Source of the DNA: Streptomyces dengpaensis
Lineage (GTDB): Bacteria > Actinomycetota > Actinomycetes > Streptomycetales > Streptomycetaceae
NCBI RefSeq assembly: GCF_002946835.1
Contig: NZ_CP026652.1
Location: 4,216,001 to 4,280,000, forward strand
Reading direction: 5' to 3'
DNA: 64,000 bases
Below are positions 2,745 through 62,262 of this stretch, one piece after another. Within the stretch, counting starts at the first letter, position 1; every line of letters starts with the position of its first letter. The notes beneath the pieces are model-generated. The model was not told the DNA's origin. It ran no database searches and saw only the letters and a list, made by a program, of their open reading frames with translations. The position numbers were made by a program, and so were the translations under genes.

Positions 2745-3221
2745 ATGGCAGTCCCCGAGGTCATTCCGATCGCCTATGAGCCGAAGCACCGTACCGAGAC
2801 CATCGGACGGTACGCGGACGGTCAGTTCCTGGCGTCGATCACGTACGCGTTCCCCGAAGGGTTCCGTCCCGACGACGGCTGGGAAGAGCACAAACGCCTG
2901 TACACGGTGCTCCACACCTTCGACGCCGACGGCCACTACCGCGACTCGGAGATCTGGTGCGCGGGCACCTGGGCCGAGCAGCAGCGCGACCCGCACGGCG
3001 ACAACTCGGTCCTCTCCCAGGCCCGCGTCCACCTGGCGAAACTGCTGCGCAGCCTGCCCCGCCGCTCCTACACCGACATCGCGATCCGCCCCTTCCAACT
3101 CACCTTCGACGGCGTGCGGTTCGGCCTGCTGACGGGAGAGGACGGGGGCGAGGGCTGGGCCGAGCTCTACCCGGACCACCTCGGGTTCGGCGAGCCCTGG
3201 GACGGTACGTACGACACGTGA
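2745..3221 (+). CDS. Conserved hypothetical protein
   Basis: The 158-residue soluble product looks like an actinobacterial conserved hypothetical: MAVPEVIPIAYEP at the start, then alternating strands and aromatic residues (WCAGTWAEQQRD, DIAIRPFQLTFDGVRFGL). There is no signal peptide, membrane segment or known motif. The ATG at 2745 is chosen over the upstream ATG at 2715 because the extra ten residues look like untranslated leader. The last codons (GTYDT and stop) are the first unit of a four-copy degenerate tandem repeat running downstream. Function unknown. Confidence 0.7.
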   Translation: MAVPEVIPIAYEPKHRTETIGRYADGQFLASITYAFPEGFRPDDGWEEHKRLYTVLHTFDADGHYRDSEIWCAGTWAEQQRDPHGDNSVLSQARVHLAKLLRSLPRRSYTDIAIRPFQLTFDGVRFGLLTGEDGGEGWAELYPDHLGFGEPWDGTYDT

Positions 3222-3276
3222 CGGTACGTAGGACACGTGAAGTACGCACGACACCTGCGGTACGTACGGGGCCTGA
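3204..3276 (+). repeat. Four degenerate 18-19 bp repeats starting at a gene's stop codon
   Basis: Units begin at 3204, 3223, 3241 and 3259. The first reads GGTACGTACGACACGTGA and ends with the TGA stop of the upstream gene (3219-3221). The second differs by one base and the last two are more diverged. This is one of a set of stop-codon-containing tandem duplications in this window. Confidence 0.75.
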
Positions 3277-6389: not shown

Positions 6390-6454
6390 GTCCAAGGCCT
6401 GGGCCCGGACCTCCCAAGGGTACCGGGCACCCCAAGATCGCCGCCCCCAATACT

Positions 6455-11080: not shown

Positions 11081-11093
11081 CCGGGATGTCGTA

Positions 11094-11138
11094 CGAGAAC
11101 GGGTGCTAGCCGTACACGAGAGGAGCGCTAGCCGTACA
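11094..11138 (-). repeat. Two 22-23 bp repeats carrying the SseB-like gene's stop
   Basis: Copies at 11117-11138 (containing the TAG stop at 11130-11128) and 11094-11116. On the minus strand both begin TGTACGGCTAGC, so the last codons and stop are duplicated downstream. Confidence 0.8.
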
Positions 11139-17099: not shown

Positions 17100-17201
17100 G
17101 ATGGAAACCTGCGGGCCCGGCTGCGGCGGGTGACCGGACTCGGCCCGTCGGCCTACCGGCGGCGTTTCGGGCCGCCTGCCGGGGAACCGGTGAGGGTATG
17201 A
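17100..17201 (+). pseudogene. Relic of an AraC/GlxA-family regulator C-terminus
   Basis: The frame 17100-17201 reads DGNLRARLRRVTGLGPSAYR then RRF-GPPAGEP and a stop. This is the end of an AraC-type second helix-turn-helix (compare the usual NL-R-FRR-G-SP-AYR-RF). Upstream only about 100 bp separate it from the divergent thioredoxin/NHL gene, so the rest of the regulator is gone. Its TGA overlaps the next gene's start as ATGA. Confidence 0.65.
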
Positions 17202-17692
17202 GATACCTCGTACGCGACCGGCTCCTCGGCTTCGGCGACGACTACTGGATCGAGGACGACCGTGGCAACAAGGTCTTCCTCGTCGACGGCAAGGCCATGC
17301 GGCTGCGGGACACCTTCGAGCTGAAGGACACGCAGGGGCGGGTCCTGATCGACATCCACCAGAAGATGCTCGCCCTGCGCGACACGATGATCATCGAGCG
17401 GGACGGCGATCCGCTCGCGACCATCAAGCGCAAGCGCCTGTCCCTGCTCCGCAACCACTACCGCGTGTCCCTGGTCGACGGCACCGAACTCGACGTCAGC
17501 GGCAAGATCCTCGACCGCGAGTTCGCCATCGACTACGACAACGAACTCCTCGCCCAGATCTCCCGCCGCTGGCTCCACATCCGCGAGACGTACGGCCTGG
17601 ATGTCGTACGGGAGGACGCGGATCCGGCGCTGCTCATCGCCATCGCGGTGTGCGTGATCCATCTGGCGGAAAAGGAGCGCGCCGAGGACTGA
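17198..17692 (+). CDS. LURP-one-related / scramblase-fold protein
   Basis: The 164-residue product matches the bacterial LURP-one family with its Tubby/scramblase-like 12-strand barrel around a hydrophobic helix. It starts MRYLVRDRLLGFGDDYWIED, repeats paired strands (DTFELKDTQGRVLIDIHQKMLALRD; IKRKRLSLLRNHYRVSL) and ends with the buried helix ADPALLIAIAVCVIHLAEKE. It is cytoplasmic with no catalytic residues, and function in bacteria is unclear. The ATG at 17198 overlaps the stop of the AraC relic (ATGA). The stop region (17681-17699) is partly repeated at 17700-17715. Confidence 0.85.
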   Translation: MRYLVRDRLLGFGDDYWIEDDRGNKVFLVDGKAMRLRDTFELKDTQGRVLIDIHQKMLALRDTMIIERDGDPLATIKRKRLSLLRNHYRVSLVDGTELDVSGKILDREFAIDYDNELLAQISRRWLHIRETYGLDVVREDADPALLIAIAVCVIHLAEKERAED

Positions 17693-22769: not shown

Positions 22770-22804
22770 AAAGGGCCTGCCGCGCGGTGCGCGACAGGCC
22801 CTTT
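22770..22804 (+). terminator. Hairpin after the carboxypeptidase gene
   Basis: AAAGGGCCTG (22770-22779) pairs with CAGGCCCTTT (22795-22804) and inner CGCGC/GCGCG bases extend the stem. It is followed by CTCTGG. It lies between convergent genes and may serve both. Confidence 0.88.
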
Positions 22805-22859
22805 CTCTGGGCTCACGCCCAAGTAGTCACCTTCTCCGGGCTCACGCCCAGGTGATCAA
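22804..22859 (-). repeat. 29-bp tandem duplication of the bkdC (cluster 1) stop region
   Basis: Copies at 22833-22859 and 22804-22830 are offset by 29 bp and nearly identical. On the minus strand both contain TGGGCGTGAGCCC, of which the upstream one holds the real TGA stop of bkdC (22844-22842). Confidence 0.8.
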
Positions 22860-39962: not shown

Positions 39963-40018
39963 TCCCCGAGTATGAGCGCCCGACGGATCATTGCCATCCC
40001 GTGCCCGGCATCGGACGG

Positions 40019-40134
40019 AGACAACCGGACTGGTCAGCCCCGTCCACAGCATGTGTACGGGGACAACCGGACCGGTCGGCCCCGTGCACAGCGTGCGGAC
40101 GGGACAACCGGACCGGTCGGGCTACAGCGTCCGC
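40019..40134 (-). repeat. 41-42 bp tandem repeats containing the bkdC (cluster 2) stop
   Basis: Three units, marked by GACAACCGGAC(C/T)GGTC at 40020, 40062 and 40103. On the minus strand the first is GCGGACGCTGTAG followed by CCGACCGGTCCGGTTGTC, so it includes the TAG stop (40124-40122). The next units have CGCACGCTGTGCACGGGG and CACATGCTGTGGACGGGG in that place. Confidence 0.82.
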
Positions 40135-44073: not shown

Positions 44074-44574
44074 ATGGCACCTGAACAAATGGCCGAGCCG
44101 CCGGAGGCCGGCCCCGCTCTGCCACCCGCCCGTCCGCTCGACGCCATAGACCAAGACATCCTGCAGATGCTCCAGGCGGACGGCCGCGCCTCGATACGCT
44201 CCGTGGCCGAACGGGTCCATGTGTCACGGGCCAACGCCTACGCGCGGATCAACCGTCTCATCGAGGACGGCGTGATCCGCGGCTTCGGGGCGCGCGTCGA
44301 CCACGAGCGCGCCGGTCAGGGCACATCGGCGTACATCACGCTCAAGATCGTGCAGAACTCCTGGCGCACGGTGCGCGAGCAGCTGAGGCTGCTCCCAGGG
44401 GCCTCCCACATCGCGCTGGTGGGCGGAGACTTCGACGTACTGCTCCTGGTGCACACGCCGGACAACAGGGCGCTGCGCGAGCTGGTGCTCACGCGGCTCC
44501 AGGCCATCCCCGAAGTGCTCAGCACACGGACGCTGCTGGTGTTCGAGGAGGAGGATCTGGAGCCGGAGGGCTGA
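44074..44574 (+). CDS. bkdR: Lrp/AsnC-family regulator BkdR
   Basis: The 166-residue product has a short Pro-rich leader, an AsnC-type winged helix (about 25-75; LDAIDQDILQMLQADGRASIRSVAERVHVSRANAYARINRLI) and a RAM effector domain (about 85-160; YITLKIVQ, ASHIALVGGDFDVLLLVHTPDN). Position divergent to the bkd operon marks it as the known type of bkd regulator, likely sensing branched amino or keto acids. ATG 44074 is preferred over 44053 because GGCGGGGGGA lies six bases before it. Its last codons and stop (LEPEG, TGA) are duplicated directly downstream. Confidence 0.92.
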   Translation: MAPEQMAEPPEAGPALPPARPLDAIDQDILQMLQADGRASIRSVAERVHVSRANAYARINRLIEDGVIRGFGARVDHERAGQGTSAYITLKIVQNSWRTVREQLRLLPGASHIALVGGDFDVLLLVHTPDNRALRELVLTRLQAIPEVLSTRTLLVFEEEDLEPEG

Positions 44575-44598
44575 CCTCTGGAGCCGGAGGGCCGGCCT
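44557..44598 (+). repeat. 21-bp tandem duplication of the bkdR stop region
   Basis: Copies at 44557-44577 and 44578-44598 match at 19 of 21 bases. The first encodes LEPEG and the TGA stop, the second begins CTGGAGCCGGAGGGC with the stop changed to CGG. The second ends at the stop codon of the convergent paaR gene. Confidence 0.88.
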
Positions 44599-45188
44599 CA
44601 GTGCCCGCTGCGGAGCCCTGAGAAGACCAACTGCACGACGGCGTCCGCGACTTCCCGCTCACCCATGCCGCGCCCGTCCGGCCGGTACCACTCCACGATC
44701 GAGTTGATCATCCCGAAGACCAGCCGGGTCGCGAGCCGGACCTCCACATCGCCGCGTACGTCCCCGTCGGCGGCGGCGGCCTTCAGGAGCTCGGCCACCT
44801 GGTGGTCGAAGCCGCGGCGCCGTTCCAGGGCCCAGCGCTCGGTGTCCGTGTTGCCGCGCACGCGCAGCAGCAGCGTCACGTACGGCAGTTCGGCGGTGAG
44901 CACCTCGACCATGCGCCGTACGACGTACTCCAGGCGCTCCACGGCACGCCCCACGCGCGCGTGCTCCTCGTCGAGGATCCCGAAGAGGCCGTCGAGCGCT
45001 CGGCTGACGGCCCGGCGCAGCAGCTCCTCCTTGCCGGAGACGTGGTGGTATATCGATGACTTGGAGATGCCGGCCGCCTTGGAGAGGTGCTCCATGGAGG
45101 TGCCGTCGTAACCACGCTCGTTGAAGACCCGGACGGCGACCGAGAGCAGGGTCTCCGGAGTGTAGGTGTCGCGCTTGGCGGTGGTCAT
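44598..45188 (-). CDS. paaR: TetR-family regulator of phenylacetate genes (PaaR-like)
   Basis: The 196-residue product has a TetR helix-turn-helix (about 10-55, LLSVAVRVFNERGYDGTSMEHLSKAAGISKSSIYHHVSGKEEL) and a helical ligand domain with a C-terminal dimer helix (RLVFGMINSIVEWYRPDG). The ATG at 45188 overlaps the paaH stop (ATGA), so it is in the paaH operon. Its likely operator ACCGNNCGNNCGGT is seen ahead of paaH/paaN and paaA, as reported (from memory) for corynebacterial PaaR with phenylacetyl-CoA as inducer. The binding link is inferred from context. Confidence 0.85.
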   Translation of the reverse strand: MTTAKRDTYTPETLLSVAVRVFNERGYDGTSMEHLSKAAGISKSSIYHHVSGKEELLRRAVSRALDGLFGILDEEHARVGRAVERLEYVVRRMVEVLTAELPYVTLLLRVRGNTDTERWALERRRGFDHQVAELLKAAAADGDVRGDVEVRLATRLVFGMINSIVEWYRPDGRGMGEREVADAVVQLVFSGLRSGH

Positions 45189-50581: not shown

Positions 50582-51717
50582 CGCGCGCTCGCCTCCGTCA
50601 GTCCGTCCTCGCGGTCGCCCTCGGGGACCGACCACCAGGGCAGCTCGCGGACGACGGGCTTGTCGGACACCTGCTCCTCGCTCCACTTGGGGGGCGGCAC
50701 ATTGGTGGTGCGGGAGCGGAACTGGACGCGCTCGACGACGGCACCTTCGCCGCCCGCGAGTTCGCGGTCCAGGCGCAGCACGGCGATCCGGCGCAGATAG
50801 CGTTCCGAGAGGTCGCCGCGCAGGCCCGCGGGGCGGTCCTGGTTGTCGTGCGTTGCCACGTAGAAGTCCCAGGCGCGGCGCAGTTCGTTCTGCTGGGTGT
50901 GGCTCGGCAGCAGATTGCCGGCGATGGCCTGGCCGTCGAGTGCGGACAGGTCGTACCAGCCGGTCTCGCGGCTGCTGCCGTTCCCGGTGCGGACCAGGGC
51001 GCGGACCTGGACCGAGATGTTCTGCTGGAGCGGATTGGGGGCGAAGAGCTTCCAGTTCTGTTCGAACTCGGGGTAGATCCAGTCGTCGATCGCTTGGCCG
51101 TGCTGCTTGGTGACCGTGTTCGAGGGCGCGACATGCAGGAACACCATGCCGAGATGCACACAGGCGGTGACCGCGACGACCGCGAGAGCGAGGGCGGCGG
51201 CGATCTGGTACGGGAGGGAGAGGGCGGCTATGCCGGTGGGGGCGGAGGGCTCGGCCGACTCCGTCCGTCGCCGGGCGGGCACGGCGGAGACGCGGTCGCC
51301 GAACGGGCGCACCTGGGATGTACGCCCCTCGGACGTACGGGCCGCAGGCACCGAACTGTCGGGCGCCGGACTGCCATGCTCGGACGCGACGGGCGCAGGC
51401 CTGACAGGAGTGGAACCGTCGCGTGAGGAACCGTCGCGTGAGGAATCGTCGTGTGTGCACGAGTCGGGCGCGGACACGTCAGGCGCGGACACATCGCACG
51501 CGGACCCGCTGGGCGCGGACACGACAGGCGCGGACTCGTCGGACACGGACGCGTCGGACACGGACTCTTCAAGCGCGGACACGACAGGCGCGGAAGCGTC
51601 GGACACGGACCCTTCAGGCGCGGGTCCGTCGCACGCGGATCCATCGGGCATGGACGCGCCGGGCAGGGACCCGTCCGGCCCTGGCCCGGTCTTCGCGCTC
51701 TCGTCGTACGCGTCCAT
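50578..51717 (-). CDS. DUF5819-type membrane-anchored protein with repetitive N-terminus
   Basis: The 379-residue product has a disordered N-terminal third made of degenerate pentapeptide-like units rich in Ser, Asp, Ala, Pro and Val (about 10-115), a basic linker, one membrane helix (about 170-195, IAAALALAVVAVTACVHLGMVFLHV) and an extracytoplasmic domain (about 200-379; DDWIYPEFEQNWKLFAPNPLQQNISV; TGWYDLSALDG; YLRRIAVLRLDREL). This domain is typical of proteins encoded next to HTTM genes and may be the partner of that membrane protein. The ATG is at 51717. The repeated N-terminus is encoded by a 15-bp-period DNA repeat. Confidence 0.82.
   Translation of the reverse strand: MDAYDESAKTGPGPDGSLPGASMPDGSACDGPAPEGSVSDASAPVVSALEESVSDASVSDESAPVVSAPSGSACDVSAPDVSAPDSCTHDDSSRDGSSRDGSTPVRPAPVASEHGSPAPDSSVPAARTSEGRTSQVRPFGDRVSAVPARRRTESAEPSAPTGIAALSLPYQIAAALALAVVAVTACVHLGMVFLHVAPSNTVTKQHGQAIDDWIYPEFEQNWKLFAPNPLQQNISVQVRALVRTGNGSSRETGWYDLSALDGQAIAGNLLPSHTQQNELRRAWDFYVATHDNQDRPAGLRGDLSERYLRRIAVLRLDRELAGGEGAVVERVQFRSRTTNVPPPKWSEEQVSDKPVVRELPWWSVPEGDREDGLTEASAR
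51407..51660 (-). repeat. Degenerate 15-bp repeat tract in the DUF5819-type gene
   Basis: The coding strand carries about fifteen loosely conserved 15-bp units (plus-strand core GCGGACACGTC-GGCGC), giving repeats such as SVSDASVSDE and SAPDVSAPDS. The period is a multiple of three, so copy number can vary in frame. The opposite strand is also open, which explains long false frames here. Confidence 0.7.
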
Positions 51718-51889
51718 TCCGCCCCGATTCCCGATCCCGAATCCGATGCCGGCCGCCGGGCCGCGGGCACCGTACCGCCACGCCGCAGCACAGCGCAGCG
51801 CACCGCGACGTTCGCACGGGCACCGTACTCAGCCCCGGCCACCCGGCACAGCCCCACAAGACACAGCGGCCACACCAGCGCCCACGAGG

Positions 51890-60865: not shown

Positions 60866-60905
60866 GAAAAAAAGTAAGTAGCTGTGTTATCTATAGTCGA
60901 GTACA
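60866..60905. promoter_or_regulatory. AT-rich divergent operator/promoter region
   Basis: This stands out from the GC-rich surroundings, with AGTAAGTAG, then TATAGT (60892-60897, a likely -10 for the azoreductase gene) and AGTAC. Repeated AGTA half-sites suit an HxlR repressor, but the exact operator is not defined. Confidence 0.5.
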
Positions 60906-60973
60906 AAACAGAAGCCCAGCCCCCGGGCTTGGCTTCCCCGACCCCGCAAACCCCCACCTACCTGGAGAACCCG

Positions 60974-61627
60974 ATGGCCACCCTCCTCCACATCGACTCG
61001 TCCGTGTTCCCGGGCTCCGCCTCCGCCTCCCGCGCGGTGACGGACACCTTCCGCAAGGCCTGGCAGGAGCAGCACCCGGAGGGCACGGTGATCTACCGCG
61101 ACCTCGCCACGAACCCCGTGCCGCACATCAACGCCGACGCCCACACCGCCGGTTTCGCCGCCCCGGACGCCCACACCCCGGAGCAGGCCGCCGCATTCGC
61201 CGAGCGCGTGAGGCTCATCGAGGAGCTGGAGGCGGCGGACGCGATCCTGATCGGCGCCCCCATGTACAACTACGCGATCCCGTCGACCCTCAAGGCGTGG
61301 CTGGACAACGTGATCCTGATGGGCCGCACCGCCATGACCGAGGAGTCGAAGGTGAAGGGCACCCCGGTCACCGTCGTCGCCAGCCGCGGCGGCTCCTACG
61401 CGCCGGGCACCCCGCGCGAGCCCTACGAGTACGTGCAGAACTACCTGGAGGCGACCCTGCGCGACACCCTCGCCCTGGACCTCGACTTCATCGTCCCGGA
61501 GCTCACGATGGCGCCGCACAACCCGGCGATGTCCGAGCTGGTCCCCCTCTTCGAGGCATCCCGCACCAAGGCCCTCGACGACGCGGCCGTCAAGGCCAAG
61601 GAGCTCGCCGAGCGCTTCGCCGCGTAA
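60974..61627 (+). CDS. azoR: FMN-dependent NADH-azoreductase
   Basis: This 217-residue flavodoxin-like reductase handles quinones and azo compounds in the cytosol. It has the phosphate-binding start LLHIDSSVFPGSASASRAV, the flavin loop PMYNYAIPSTLKAWLDNVI and ASRGGSYAPGTPREPYEYV. The ATG at 60974 has GGAGA seven bases upstream; the earlier frame is leader. It is divergent from the HxlR regulator. The last 20 bp of the gene (AERFAA and TAA) are repeated three times downstream. Confidence 0.93.
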   Translation: MATLLHIDSSVFPGSASASRAVTDTFRKAWQEQHPEGTVIYRDLATNPVPHINADAHTAGFAAPDAHTPEQAAAFAERVRLIEELEAADAILIGAPMYNYAIPSTLKAWLDNVILMGRTAMTEESKVKGTPVTVVASRGGSYAPGTPREPYEYVQNYLEATLRDTLALDLDFIVPELTMAPHNPAMSELVPLFEASRTKALDDAAVKAKELAERFAA

Positions 61628-61687
61628 CCGAACAGGTCACGGCGTAACCGAGCGCGTCGGCGCGTAACCGAGCGCGTCACCAGGCAA
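61608..61687 (+). repeat. Four exact-period 20-bp repeats beginning inside the azoR end
   Basis: Units 61608-61627, 61628-61647, 61648-61667 and 61668-61687. The first, CCGAGCGCTTCGCCGCGTAA, is the end of azoR including the stop; the second and third also end in TAA, the fourth in CAA. As 20 is not a multiple of three, the three TAA fall in all three reading frames. Confidence 0.92.
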
Positions 61688-61742
61688 CCGACCGACTCGC
61701 CCCGCTGCTCCTGCCCCAGGCGACCCCGCCGTGTGACTGTCC

Positions 61743-62262
61743 TCACCCCGGATGATCACACGGCGAGGGCGCCGAGGAGAGCGCCTGTTCCGTCCAGACC
61801 GTCTTGCCGTCGGGCGTGTACCGCATGCCCCAGTTCTGGGCGAGCTGGGCGACGATGAACAGGCCGCGTCCGCCTTCATCGATGGTCCGCGCATGGCGCA
61901 GGCGCGGGGTGGCGGGGCTGGTGTCGTGGACCTCGCAGGTGAGGACGCGGTCCTTGATCAGGCGCAGGCTCAGCGGTGCGCTGCCGTAACGGACGGCGTT
62001 GGTGACCAGTTCGCTGACGATCAGTTCGGTCGCGTAAGCCACCTCCTCGTCCACGCCCCAGTCGGCGAGCCGCCGGTGAGCGTGGGCGCGCGCCGTGGCC
62101 GCCGCTGTGGGGTCCCGGTCCAGAGGCCAGGTGGCGACGTGATCGGCGGGGACGGTGTGGGCGCGGGCGAGCAGGAGGATGGCGTCGCCGGGGCCGGTGT
62201 TGCCCTGCAGGCGATAGAGCACCTCGTCACACAGGTCCTGCAGCGGCCGGTCAGGTGCCCGC
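61743..62262 (-). pseudogene. C-terminal remnant of a SpoIIE-phosphatase/ATPase protein
   Basis: The frame gives a complete HATPase_c domain (N-box TELIVSELVTNAVRYG, G-box DEGGRGLFIVAQL) preceded by PDRPLQDLCDEVLYRL and GPGDAILLLARAHTV. This is the usual end of a SpoIIE phosphatase domain in Streptomyces multi-domain regulators (as in 6588-8816). Upstream of about 62262 the homology stops at a junction with an alcohol dehydrogenase relic on the other strand, so the sensor and phosphatase parts are lost. An internal GTG at 62222 could still give a 159-residue anti-sigma-like protein. Confidence 0.65.

What the first reader, a model, noticed from the sequence alone, without database searches (positions are those of the whole stretch)
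61608..61687. Stop-codon-containing tandem repeats at many gene 3' ends; the azoR case places TAA in all three frames
Seen directly: the last 20 bp of azoR, stop included, are followed by three further 20-bp units, two of which end in TAA. Because 20 is not a multiple of 3, the three TAA cover all frames. Units of other sequence and length (15-42 bp) that include or abut a stop codon occur at 3204, 9968, 11094, 17681, 22804, 36365, 40019, 44557, 56849 and 58806. Each locus has its own sequence, so this is not one mobile repeat but a recurring process acting on gene ends. It may give backup stops or a buffer against readthrough, or mark a slippage-prone position at terminators.
Basis: partly seen in the sequence, partly recalled or inferred. 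Interest (0 to 1): 0.8.

Follow-up and report, generated by a model that had tools for sequence, protein, structure and literature searches.

The report
Ordinary tandem repeats after Streptomyces genes
The 20-base repeat behind azoR is real and carries a stop triplet in three frames, but it looks like one of many short-lived, locally made repeats that build up in the loosely constrained DNA behind Streptomyces genes, and nothing here shows that the extra stops do a job.

Summary
The azoR array is real: four 20-bp units (61608-61687), the first being the gene's last 20 bp, with TAA ending units 1-3 in three frames. Over 2.404 Mb (own genome, five relatives), arrays of period 15-45 overlap 88 of 1896 stops but 18 of 1900 starts. 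Yet coverage rises to about 10% behind the stop, so the stop is not the peak. Against random placement, convergent regions show no excess overall (30 versus 29.2), though the relatives alone do (14 versus 8.7, p 0.005); co-directional regions show 44 versus 20.9, mostly from the own genome. The stop lies in the first unit in 78 of 88 cases, so proteins are unchanged. Of 21 array-bearing regions, 13 lack arrays in a relative at 92% identity. Stop columns are no better kept than others (86.9% versus 85.8%), and periods do not avoid multiples of 3. Best reading: local minisatellite birth and decay, filtered by selection on coding and 5' DNA. Backup stops are not supported; a modest gene-end hotspot stays open.

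The parts
60974..61627 (+). azoR-like gene (flavodoxin-like fold, azoreductase-like, 217 aa); stop TAA at 61625-61627
   Evidence: Pfam Flavodoxin_2 5.6e-35; NCBIfam azoreductase subfamilies at 2.5e-15, below the curated cut-off; homologues align from residue 1; C-terminus coincides with that of the G064 orthologue
61608..61627 (+). unit 1: the last 20 bp of azoR including the stop; closely similar to the tails of orthologues, so taken as the ancestral copy
61628..61647 (+). unit 2, ends in TAA (shifted frame)
61648..61667 (+). unit 3, ends in TAA (the other shifted frame)
61668..61687 (+). unit 4, ends in CAA
61725..61768 (.). terminator-like hairpin (CCGTGTGA at 61729-61736, TCACACGG at 61756-61763) behind the array; the motif lies 102 bases behind the stop here and 23-53 bases behind it in the relatives where I counted it (G064, G236, G291/L113, L006), so the array sits between stop and hairpin
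   Evidence: folded; sequences; pattern in L001, L006, L113, L226 (G064), L230 (G236), L238 (G291)
44556..44599 (.). 21-bp duplication across the stop of an Lrp-like regulator gene (stop 44572-44574), reaching the stop of the convergent TetR-like gene (44598-44600); the second copy is absent in G064 and G236
3201..3268 (+). 18-bp array, 3.7 copies, across the stop 3219-3221
11093..11138 (-). 22-bp array, 2.0 copies, across the stop 11128-11130 of a minus-strand gene
22803..22853 (-). 29-bp-period repeat, two copies, across the stop 22842-22844; below the TRF threshold
39998..40120 (-). 42-bp array, 3.0 copies, one base away from the stop 40122-40124; 123 bp here, 39 bp in G064 and G236

Best explanation
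The repeats are minisatellites made locally by short tandem duplication (replication slippage or template switching, units of 15-45 bp, then expansion) in a Streptomyces genome. They survive mainly where they do no harm: behind genes. A duplication whose source segment includes the stop codon is harmless, because the first copy keeps the whole reading frame and its stop; the extra copies, with their copied stops, fall into untranslated DNA. Shown: local sequence, the first-unit rule, absence of many arrays in close relatives, unchanged protein ends in the cases testable, avoidance of starts, multiple-of-three periods inside genes. Inferred: slippage as the molecular cause, and neutrality. The three-frame TAA of azoR follows automatically from an array of three or more copies whose period is not a multiple of 3 and whose first unit holds the stop.
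For: Combined set of 2.404 Mb, genes with caller score >=30: array coverage convergent 13.5%, co-directional 6.8%, divergent 3.6%, coding 1.3%; stops 88/1896, starts 18/1900; stop in the first unit (within 1.1 periods) in 78/88, where mean 1/copies of noncoding arrays (0.37) would be a rough expectation if arrays ignored the gene. Convergent regions overall: 30 stop overlaps against 29.2. Period a multiple of 3: coding 359/387, noncoding 103/217, stop-spanning 39/88. All 10 stop-array genes of the contiguous 264 kb that have a G064 orthologue end at the same residue. Of 98 orthologous intergenic regions shared with G064 (median identity of orthologues 92.4%), 21 carry arrays in own; 13 of these have none in G064; of the 8 with arrays in both, 2 have clearly similar units by eye and a third shares a stretch of about 9 bases. 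Alignments show own-only extra copies at 6452, 44556 and 226217. The azoR tail is shared by many orthologues, while by eye the downstream units are not seen in the other 109 tails printed.
Against: Between co-directional genes arrays overlap stops 44 times against 20.9 from uniform placement; a linear decline towards the start gives 32.8 (p 0.007), arrays in the stop-proximal half give 41 against 26.2, and start keep-out zones of 20-100 bp leave a 1.8- to 2.1-fold excess. In the five relatives convergent regions show 14 stop overlaps against 8.7 (p 0.0046), offset in the total by the own genome's 16 against 20.4. Arrays recur at the same orthologous regions more than expected in G064 (8 against 4.07, Fisher p 0.026, not controlled for length or class; not significant in the four other relatives). 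Noncoding periods favour multiples of 3 (103/217), unexplained. L113 and G291 have a second TAA at +20, so one azoR unit could be older than the rest. Gene models come from my own caller; starts are less certain than stops.
Confidence: 0.72

Rival explanations
1. Gene ends are a mutational hotspot: duplications start preferentially at or just before stop codons, for instance where ribosomes leave the transcript and transcription-linked DNA damage follows.
For: Array-start density in the own sample is about 1.0-2.1 per kb in the 10-base bins between -29 and +30 of the stop against 0.5-1.3 beyond +40. Co-directional stop overlaps 44 against 20.9, with a residual excess after keep-out and decline nulls. 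Relatives, convergent: 14 against 8.7, p 0.0046.
Against: Own genome, convergent: 16 against 20.4; overall convergent 30 against 29.2; 80 named azoR neighbourhoods, convergent 5 against 5.5. Relatives, co-directional: 8 against 6.4, p 0.29. Promoter avoidance explains part of the co-directional shift. Several of the relatives' convergent overlaps reach the stop by only one or a few bases.
Confidence: 0.2
2. Selected backup stops: arrays are kept because they place extra stops behind the gene, in all frames.
For: Array genes have an in-frame stop within 10 codons more often than others (30% of 80 against 15.3% of 1800), but only where the period is a multiple of 3 (50% of 34 against 15.2% of 46), as duplication alone would give.
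Against: azoR's extra TAA are out of frame. In indel-free arrays stop columns are no better kept than others (146/168 = 86.9% against 1175/1370 = 85.8%), and a stop stands in 33 of 65 later units. Multiples of 3 are not avoided (39/88). TAA is not enriched among array genes (4 of 88 against 152 of 1800). A survey of eubacteria reports no compelling evidence for selection of additional stops (PMC6764699, abstract read).
Confidence: 0.02
3. The arrays are terminators or structured 3' ends.
For: The azoR array can fold (-32.5 kcal/mol for 80 nt). Raw folding energy of array-bearing flanks does not differ from others (-40.3 against -39.1, p 0.38).
Against: Relative to mononucleotide shuffles, 92 array-bearing 3' flanks fold less well than 250 sampled from 777 array-free ones (z -0.97 against -1.79, p 0.016). 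azoR keeps a separate hairpin behind the array, whose motif is shared with relatives that lack the array.
Confidence: 0.04
4. A dispersed repeat family (like MIRU in mycobacteria) inserted at gene ends.
For: MIRU also sit at gene borders (passage in PMC12548453).
Against: Only 11 pairs among 210 own-genome arrays are alike; unit 1 of azoR is the gene's own tail.
Confidence: 0.02

Closest known systems
Bacterial and archaeal minisatellites / VNTR loci (e.g. 'Satellites in the prokaryote world', PMC6749651)
   Same: Short head-to-tail arrays, some with unit lengths a multiple of 3 inside genes; Streptomyces coelicolor is listed there with 38 satellites (passages and section 6 read).
   Different: The passages and section read do not analyse position relative to stop codons or gene orientation (a search of its text for 'stop codon', 'downstream' and 'convergent' found none). 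Here arrays are mostly few, imperfect copies, unique per locus.
Tandem repeats of archaeal Borg elements (PMC9879509)
   Same: Rapidly evolving, independently formed arrays; unit lengths divisible by 3 inside genes; about half intergenic or with the first unit within or partly within gene ends (passages and section 9 read).
   Different: Borg units are perfect and A-rich; here they are imperfect, GC-rich and chromosomal.
MIRU of mycobacteria
   Same: Repeats located at gene borders (one passage in PMC12548453).
   Different: Described there as mobile and inserting at start codons; here nearly every locus has its own sequence and starts are avoided.
Additional (tandem) stop codons
   Same: Extra stop triplets behind the primary stop.
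   Different: Defined as in-frame; selected in several eukaryotes, with no compelling evidence in eubacteria (PMC6764699, abstract). Here out of frame at azoR and not preferentially kept.

Membership tests
Local minisatellite (VNTR-like array) | Head-to-tail copies beyond chance | tested here: met
   141 arrays with score >=50 in intergenic DNA against 1-2 in each of five simulations
Local minisatellite (VNTR-like array) | Sequence is local, not a dispersed family | tested here: met
   11 alike pairs among 210 arrays, one set of three identical; azoR unit 1 is the gene tail
Local minisatellite (VNTR-like array) | Copy number varies between lineages | tested here: met
   between species only: 13 of 21 own-array regions have no array in G064; alignments
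Local minisatellite (VNTR-like array) | Copy number varies between strains of one species | not testable with these tools
   the genome collections hold one genome per species
Backup (additional) stop codons | In-frame with the primary stop | tested here: not met
   azoR frame 0 has no stop in the array (read)
Backup (additional) stop codons | Stop triplets conserved above neighbouring columns | tested here: not met
   86.9% against 85.8%
MIRU | Shared sequence among loci | tested here: not met
Intrinsic terminator | More stable RNA structure than other 3' flanks | tested here: not met
   z -0.97 against -1.79 (p 0.016); raw energy no different (p 0.38)

The most novel reading that the evidence does not exclude
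In Streptomyces, 3' gene ends are seeding sites for short tandem duplication: a transcription- or translation-linked process generates arrays starting within about 30 bp of the stop, so that gene ends are re-copied again and again in independent lineages.
Probability: 0.16. Interest if true: 0.5.

Novelty: new member of a known kind. Interest (0 to 1): 0.27.

Why it matters
It shows how a striking arrangement (a stop triplet in three frames) can arise without selection for it, and gives simple numbers for where short arrays survive in a high-GC bacterial chromosome: behind genes, least in coding and promoter DNA. The fast turnover could make 3' flanks useful as strain markers. If the stop-side excess held in more genomes, it would point to a duplication process tied to gene ends.

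Tried and rejected
Gene calls: my first caller missed genes whose best start ran into a neighbour (for example 17198-17692); it was replaced and the main counts repeated, with nearly unchanged results. rest on the first caller; on the second. Stop and start counts use genes with caller score >=30 only, and region tests use intergenic regions of 20-600 bp between two such genes. Uniform placement as the only null was too simple for co-directional regions; keep-out zones and a linear decline were added; for each keep-out null, arrays lying in the zone were dropped (105 down to 63 of 124 kept). Shared arrays between own and G064 as evidence for hotspots: weak, not controlled for region length. 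Folding compared 92 array-bearing flanks with 250 of 777 array-free ones, with mononucleotide shuffles only, and GC differs (0.730 against 0.684). Rfam on the window at gathering scores: no match. Paper searches gave, in the titles and abstract openings listed, no study of arrays by stop codon in Streptomyces; beyond the four papers cited I read none of those listed. One search took 112 loci: L182 gave no stop and one was not reported by the alignment search; 110 tails were printed. They include the window's own locus, a second azoR-like copy of the own genome, some loci of one and the same genome, and one row (L167) that shows a stop inside the gene, in a wrong frame.

Full report
What was claimed and what is there. 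The window is G000:C1:4216001-4280000 of an 8.7 Mb genome in 3 contigs; its nearest named relatives at azoR are Streptomyces. The azoR gene (60974-61627) is followed by the array described: units 61608-61627, 61628-61647, 61648-61667 and 61668-61687, the first three ending in TAA; TRF score 93-105. Reading on in frame 0 from the stop, I find no stop inside the array, so a ribosome that reads through meets none of the extra TAA in its own frame. Of the 11 sites named, 5 hold a repeat across a stop, 4 have an array 1-38 bases away, and 2 (9968, 17681) are not above 300 shuffled segments.

Is it more than chance? Yes, as repeats. Arrays of period 15-45 and score >=50 in 186 kb of intergenic DNA number 141, against 1-2 in each of five second-order Markov simulations.

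Is the stop special? I used 80 stretches of 20 kb plus the window, 140 kb more of the own genome that does not overlap them, and 600 kb of five relatives: 2.404 Mb, 2138 genes called by my own codon-usage caller. Against G064 orthologues, 153 of 165 protein ends agree within 3 residues, and all 10 stop-array genes with an orthologue agree exactly. Arrays overlap 88/1896 stops and 18/1900 starts. But coverage is 0.030 in the last 20 bp of genes, 0.071 in the 20 bases from the last base of the stop on, and 0.095-0.101 from +20 to +99; before starts it falls to 0.014. By region: convergent 13.5%, co-directional 6.8%, divergent 3.6%, coding 1.3%.

Placement test. I kept each array's length and region and moved it at random, with the rule that the end codon must stay in an outer unit. 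Convergent regions, all data: 30 stop overlaps against 29.2 expected. By set: own genome 16 against 20.4, five relatives 14 against 8.7 (p 0.0046, seven of the 14 from G064), and 80 named azoR neighbourhoods, not part of the combined set, 5 against 5.5. Co-directional regions: 44 against 20.9 at the stop and 11 against 21.0 at the start. By set at the stop: own 36 against 14.5, relatives 8 against 6.4 (p 0.29), named neighbourhoods 7 against 3.9 (p 0.06). The avoidance of starts explains part of the shift: with a linear decline towards the start 32.8 are expected (p 0.007), and keep-out zones of 20-100 bp leave 1.8- to 2.1-fold. So a stop-side excess exists in both own and relatives, but in different region classes. 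I do not count it as settled either way.

How arrays come to hold stops. In 78 of 88 stop-spanning cases the stop is in the first unit (within 1.1 periods). That is what duplication behind an intact first copy must give: the frame and its stop stay, the copies fall outside. Inside genes 359 of 387 arrays have periods divisible by 3, in noncoding DNA 103 of 217, across stops 39 of 88. Nothing favours periods that cover all frames.

Age and origin. Many orthologues of azoR share the tail of unit 1, while by eye the downstream units are not seen in the other 109 tails printed. In G064 and G236 the hairpin motif CCGTGTGA follows the azoR stop after about 32 bases, in G291 and L113 after 53; here after 102, with the array between. 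L113 and G291 carry a second TAA at +20 in otherwise poorly matching sequence; this may be chance or an old unit. Of 98 orthologous intergenic regions with G064, 21 have arrays here and 19 there, 8 both (4.07 expected, p 0.026); of the 8, units look clearly related in 2 and share about 9 bases in a third. In G236, G152, G291 and G217 arrays in both were 2, 2, 1 and 0 (not significant). At 44556 both G064 and G236 have a single copy where the window has two, across the stop of an Lrp-like gene. Among 210 own-genome noncoding or edge arrays 11 pairs are alike, three of them within one locus each and three from one identical set.

Function tests. In indel-free arrays stop columns are kept in later units no better than other columns (146/168 against 1175/1370), and 33 of 65 later units still have a stop in place. 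In-frame stops within 10 codons are commoner behind array genes (30% of 80 against 15.3% of 1800), but only where the period is a multiple of 3, as copying alone gives. Array-bearing 3' flanks have the same raw folding energy as others (p 0.38) and weaker z-scores (-0.97 against -1.79, p 0.016). A published survey reports no compelling evidence for selection of additional stops in eubacteria (PMC6764699, abstract).

Known relatives of the idea. In Borg elements about half of the arrays are intergenic or begin within gene ends, and units in genes are divisible by 3 (PMC9879509, passages and one section). Satellites in prokaryotes, including S. coelicolor, are surveyed in PMC6749651 (passages and section 6). 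Hence a new member of a known kind. The distribution by gene orientation may be new for Streptomyces; my searches listed nothing on it, but they cover openly licensed papers only.

Verdict. Real repeats, probably of ordinary cause. Local duplication filtered by selection is the best reading (0.72); a gene-end hotspot is the boldest reading left (0.16).

Noticed in passing
61725-61768: A hairpin with arms CCGTGTGA/TCACACGG behind azoR, whose motif is shared with relatives. In three of five relative loci scanned (L114, L006, L144) a tRNA-Leu (CAG) follows azoR, while ARAGORN finds no tRNA near azoR in the window, so the downstream neighbour differs here.
   Followed up: partly
51412-51639: A dense cluster of 15-, 45- and 60-bp repeats between two genes; a tRNA-Val call of 98 nt (51751-51848) lies just beyond it and may be false.
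   Followed up: no
noncoding arrays of the combined set: Periods divisible by 3 make up 103 of 217 noncoding arrays, above one third; 15 and 18 bp stand out in the own sample. Overlooked small genes are one possible cause.
   Followed up: no
L144 against L145, behind azoR: L144 has CACCGGCCGCACATCA twice where L145 has it once: an independent duplication at the same gene end.
   Followed up: no
L051 12574-12617, L057 14950-14992, L093 7966-8008: Three own-genome loci carry an identical 43-bp, 20-bp-period repeat, so a small dispersed family exists beside the local arrays.
   Followed up: no
60884-60973: My caller extended azoR to a GTG at 60884; homologues support the ATG at 60974.
   Followed up: partly
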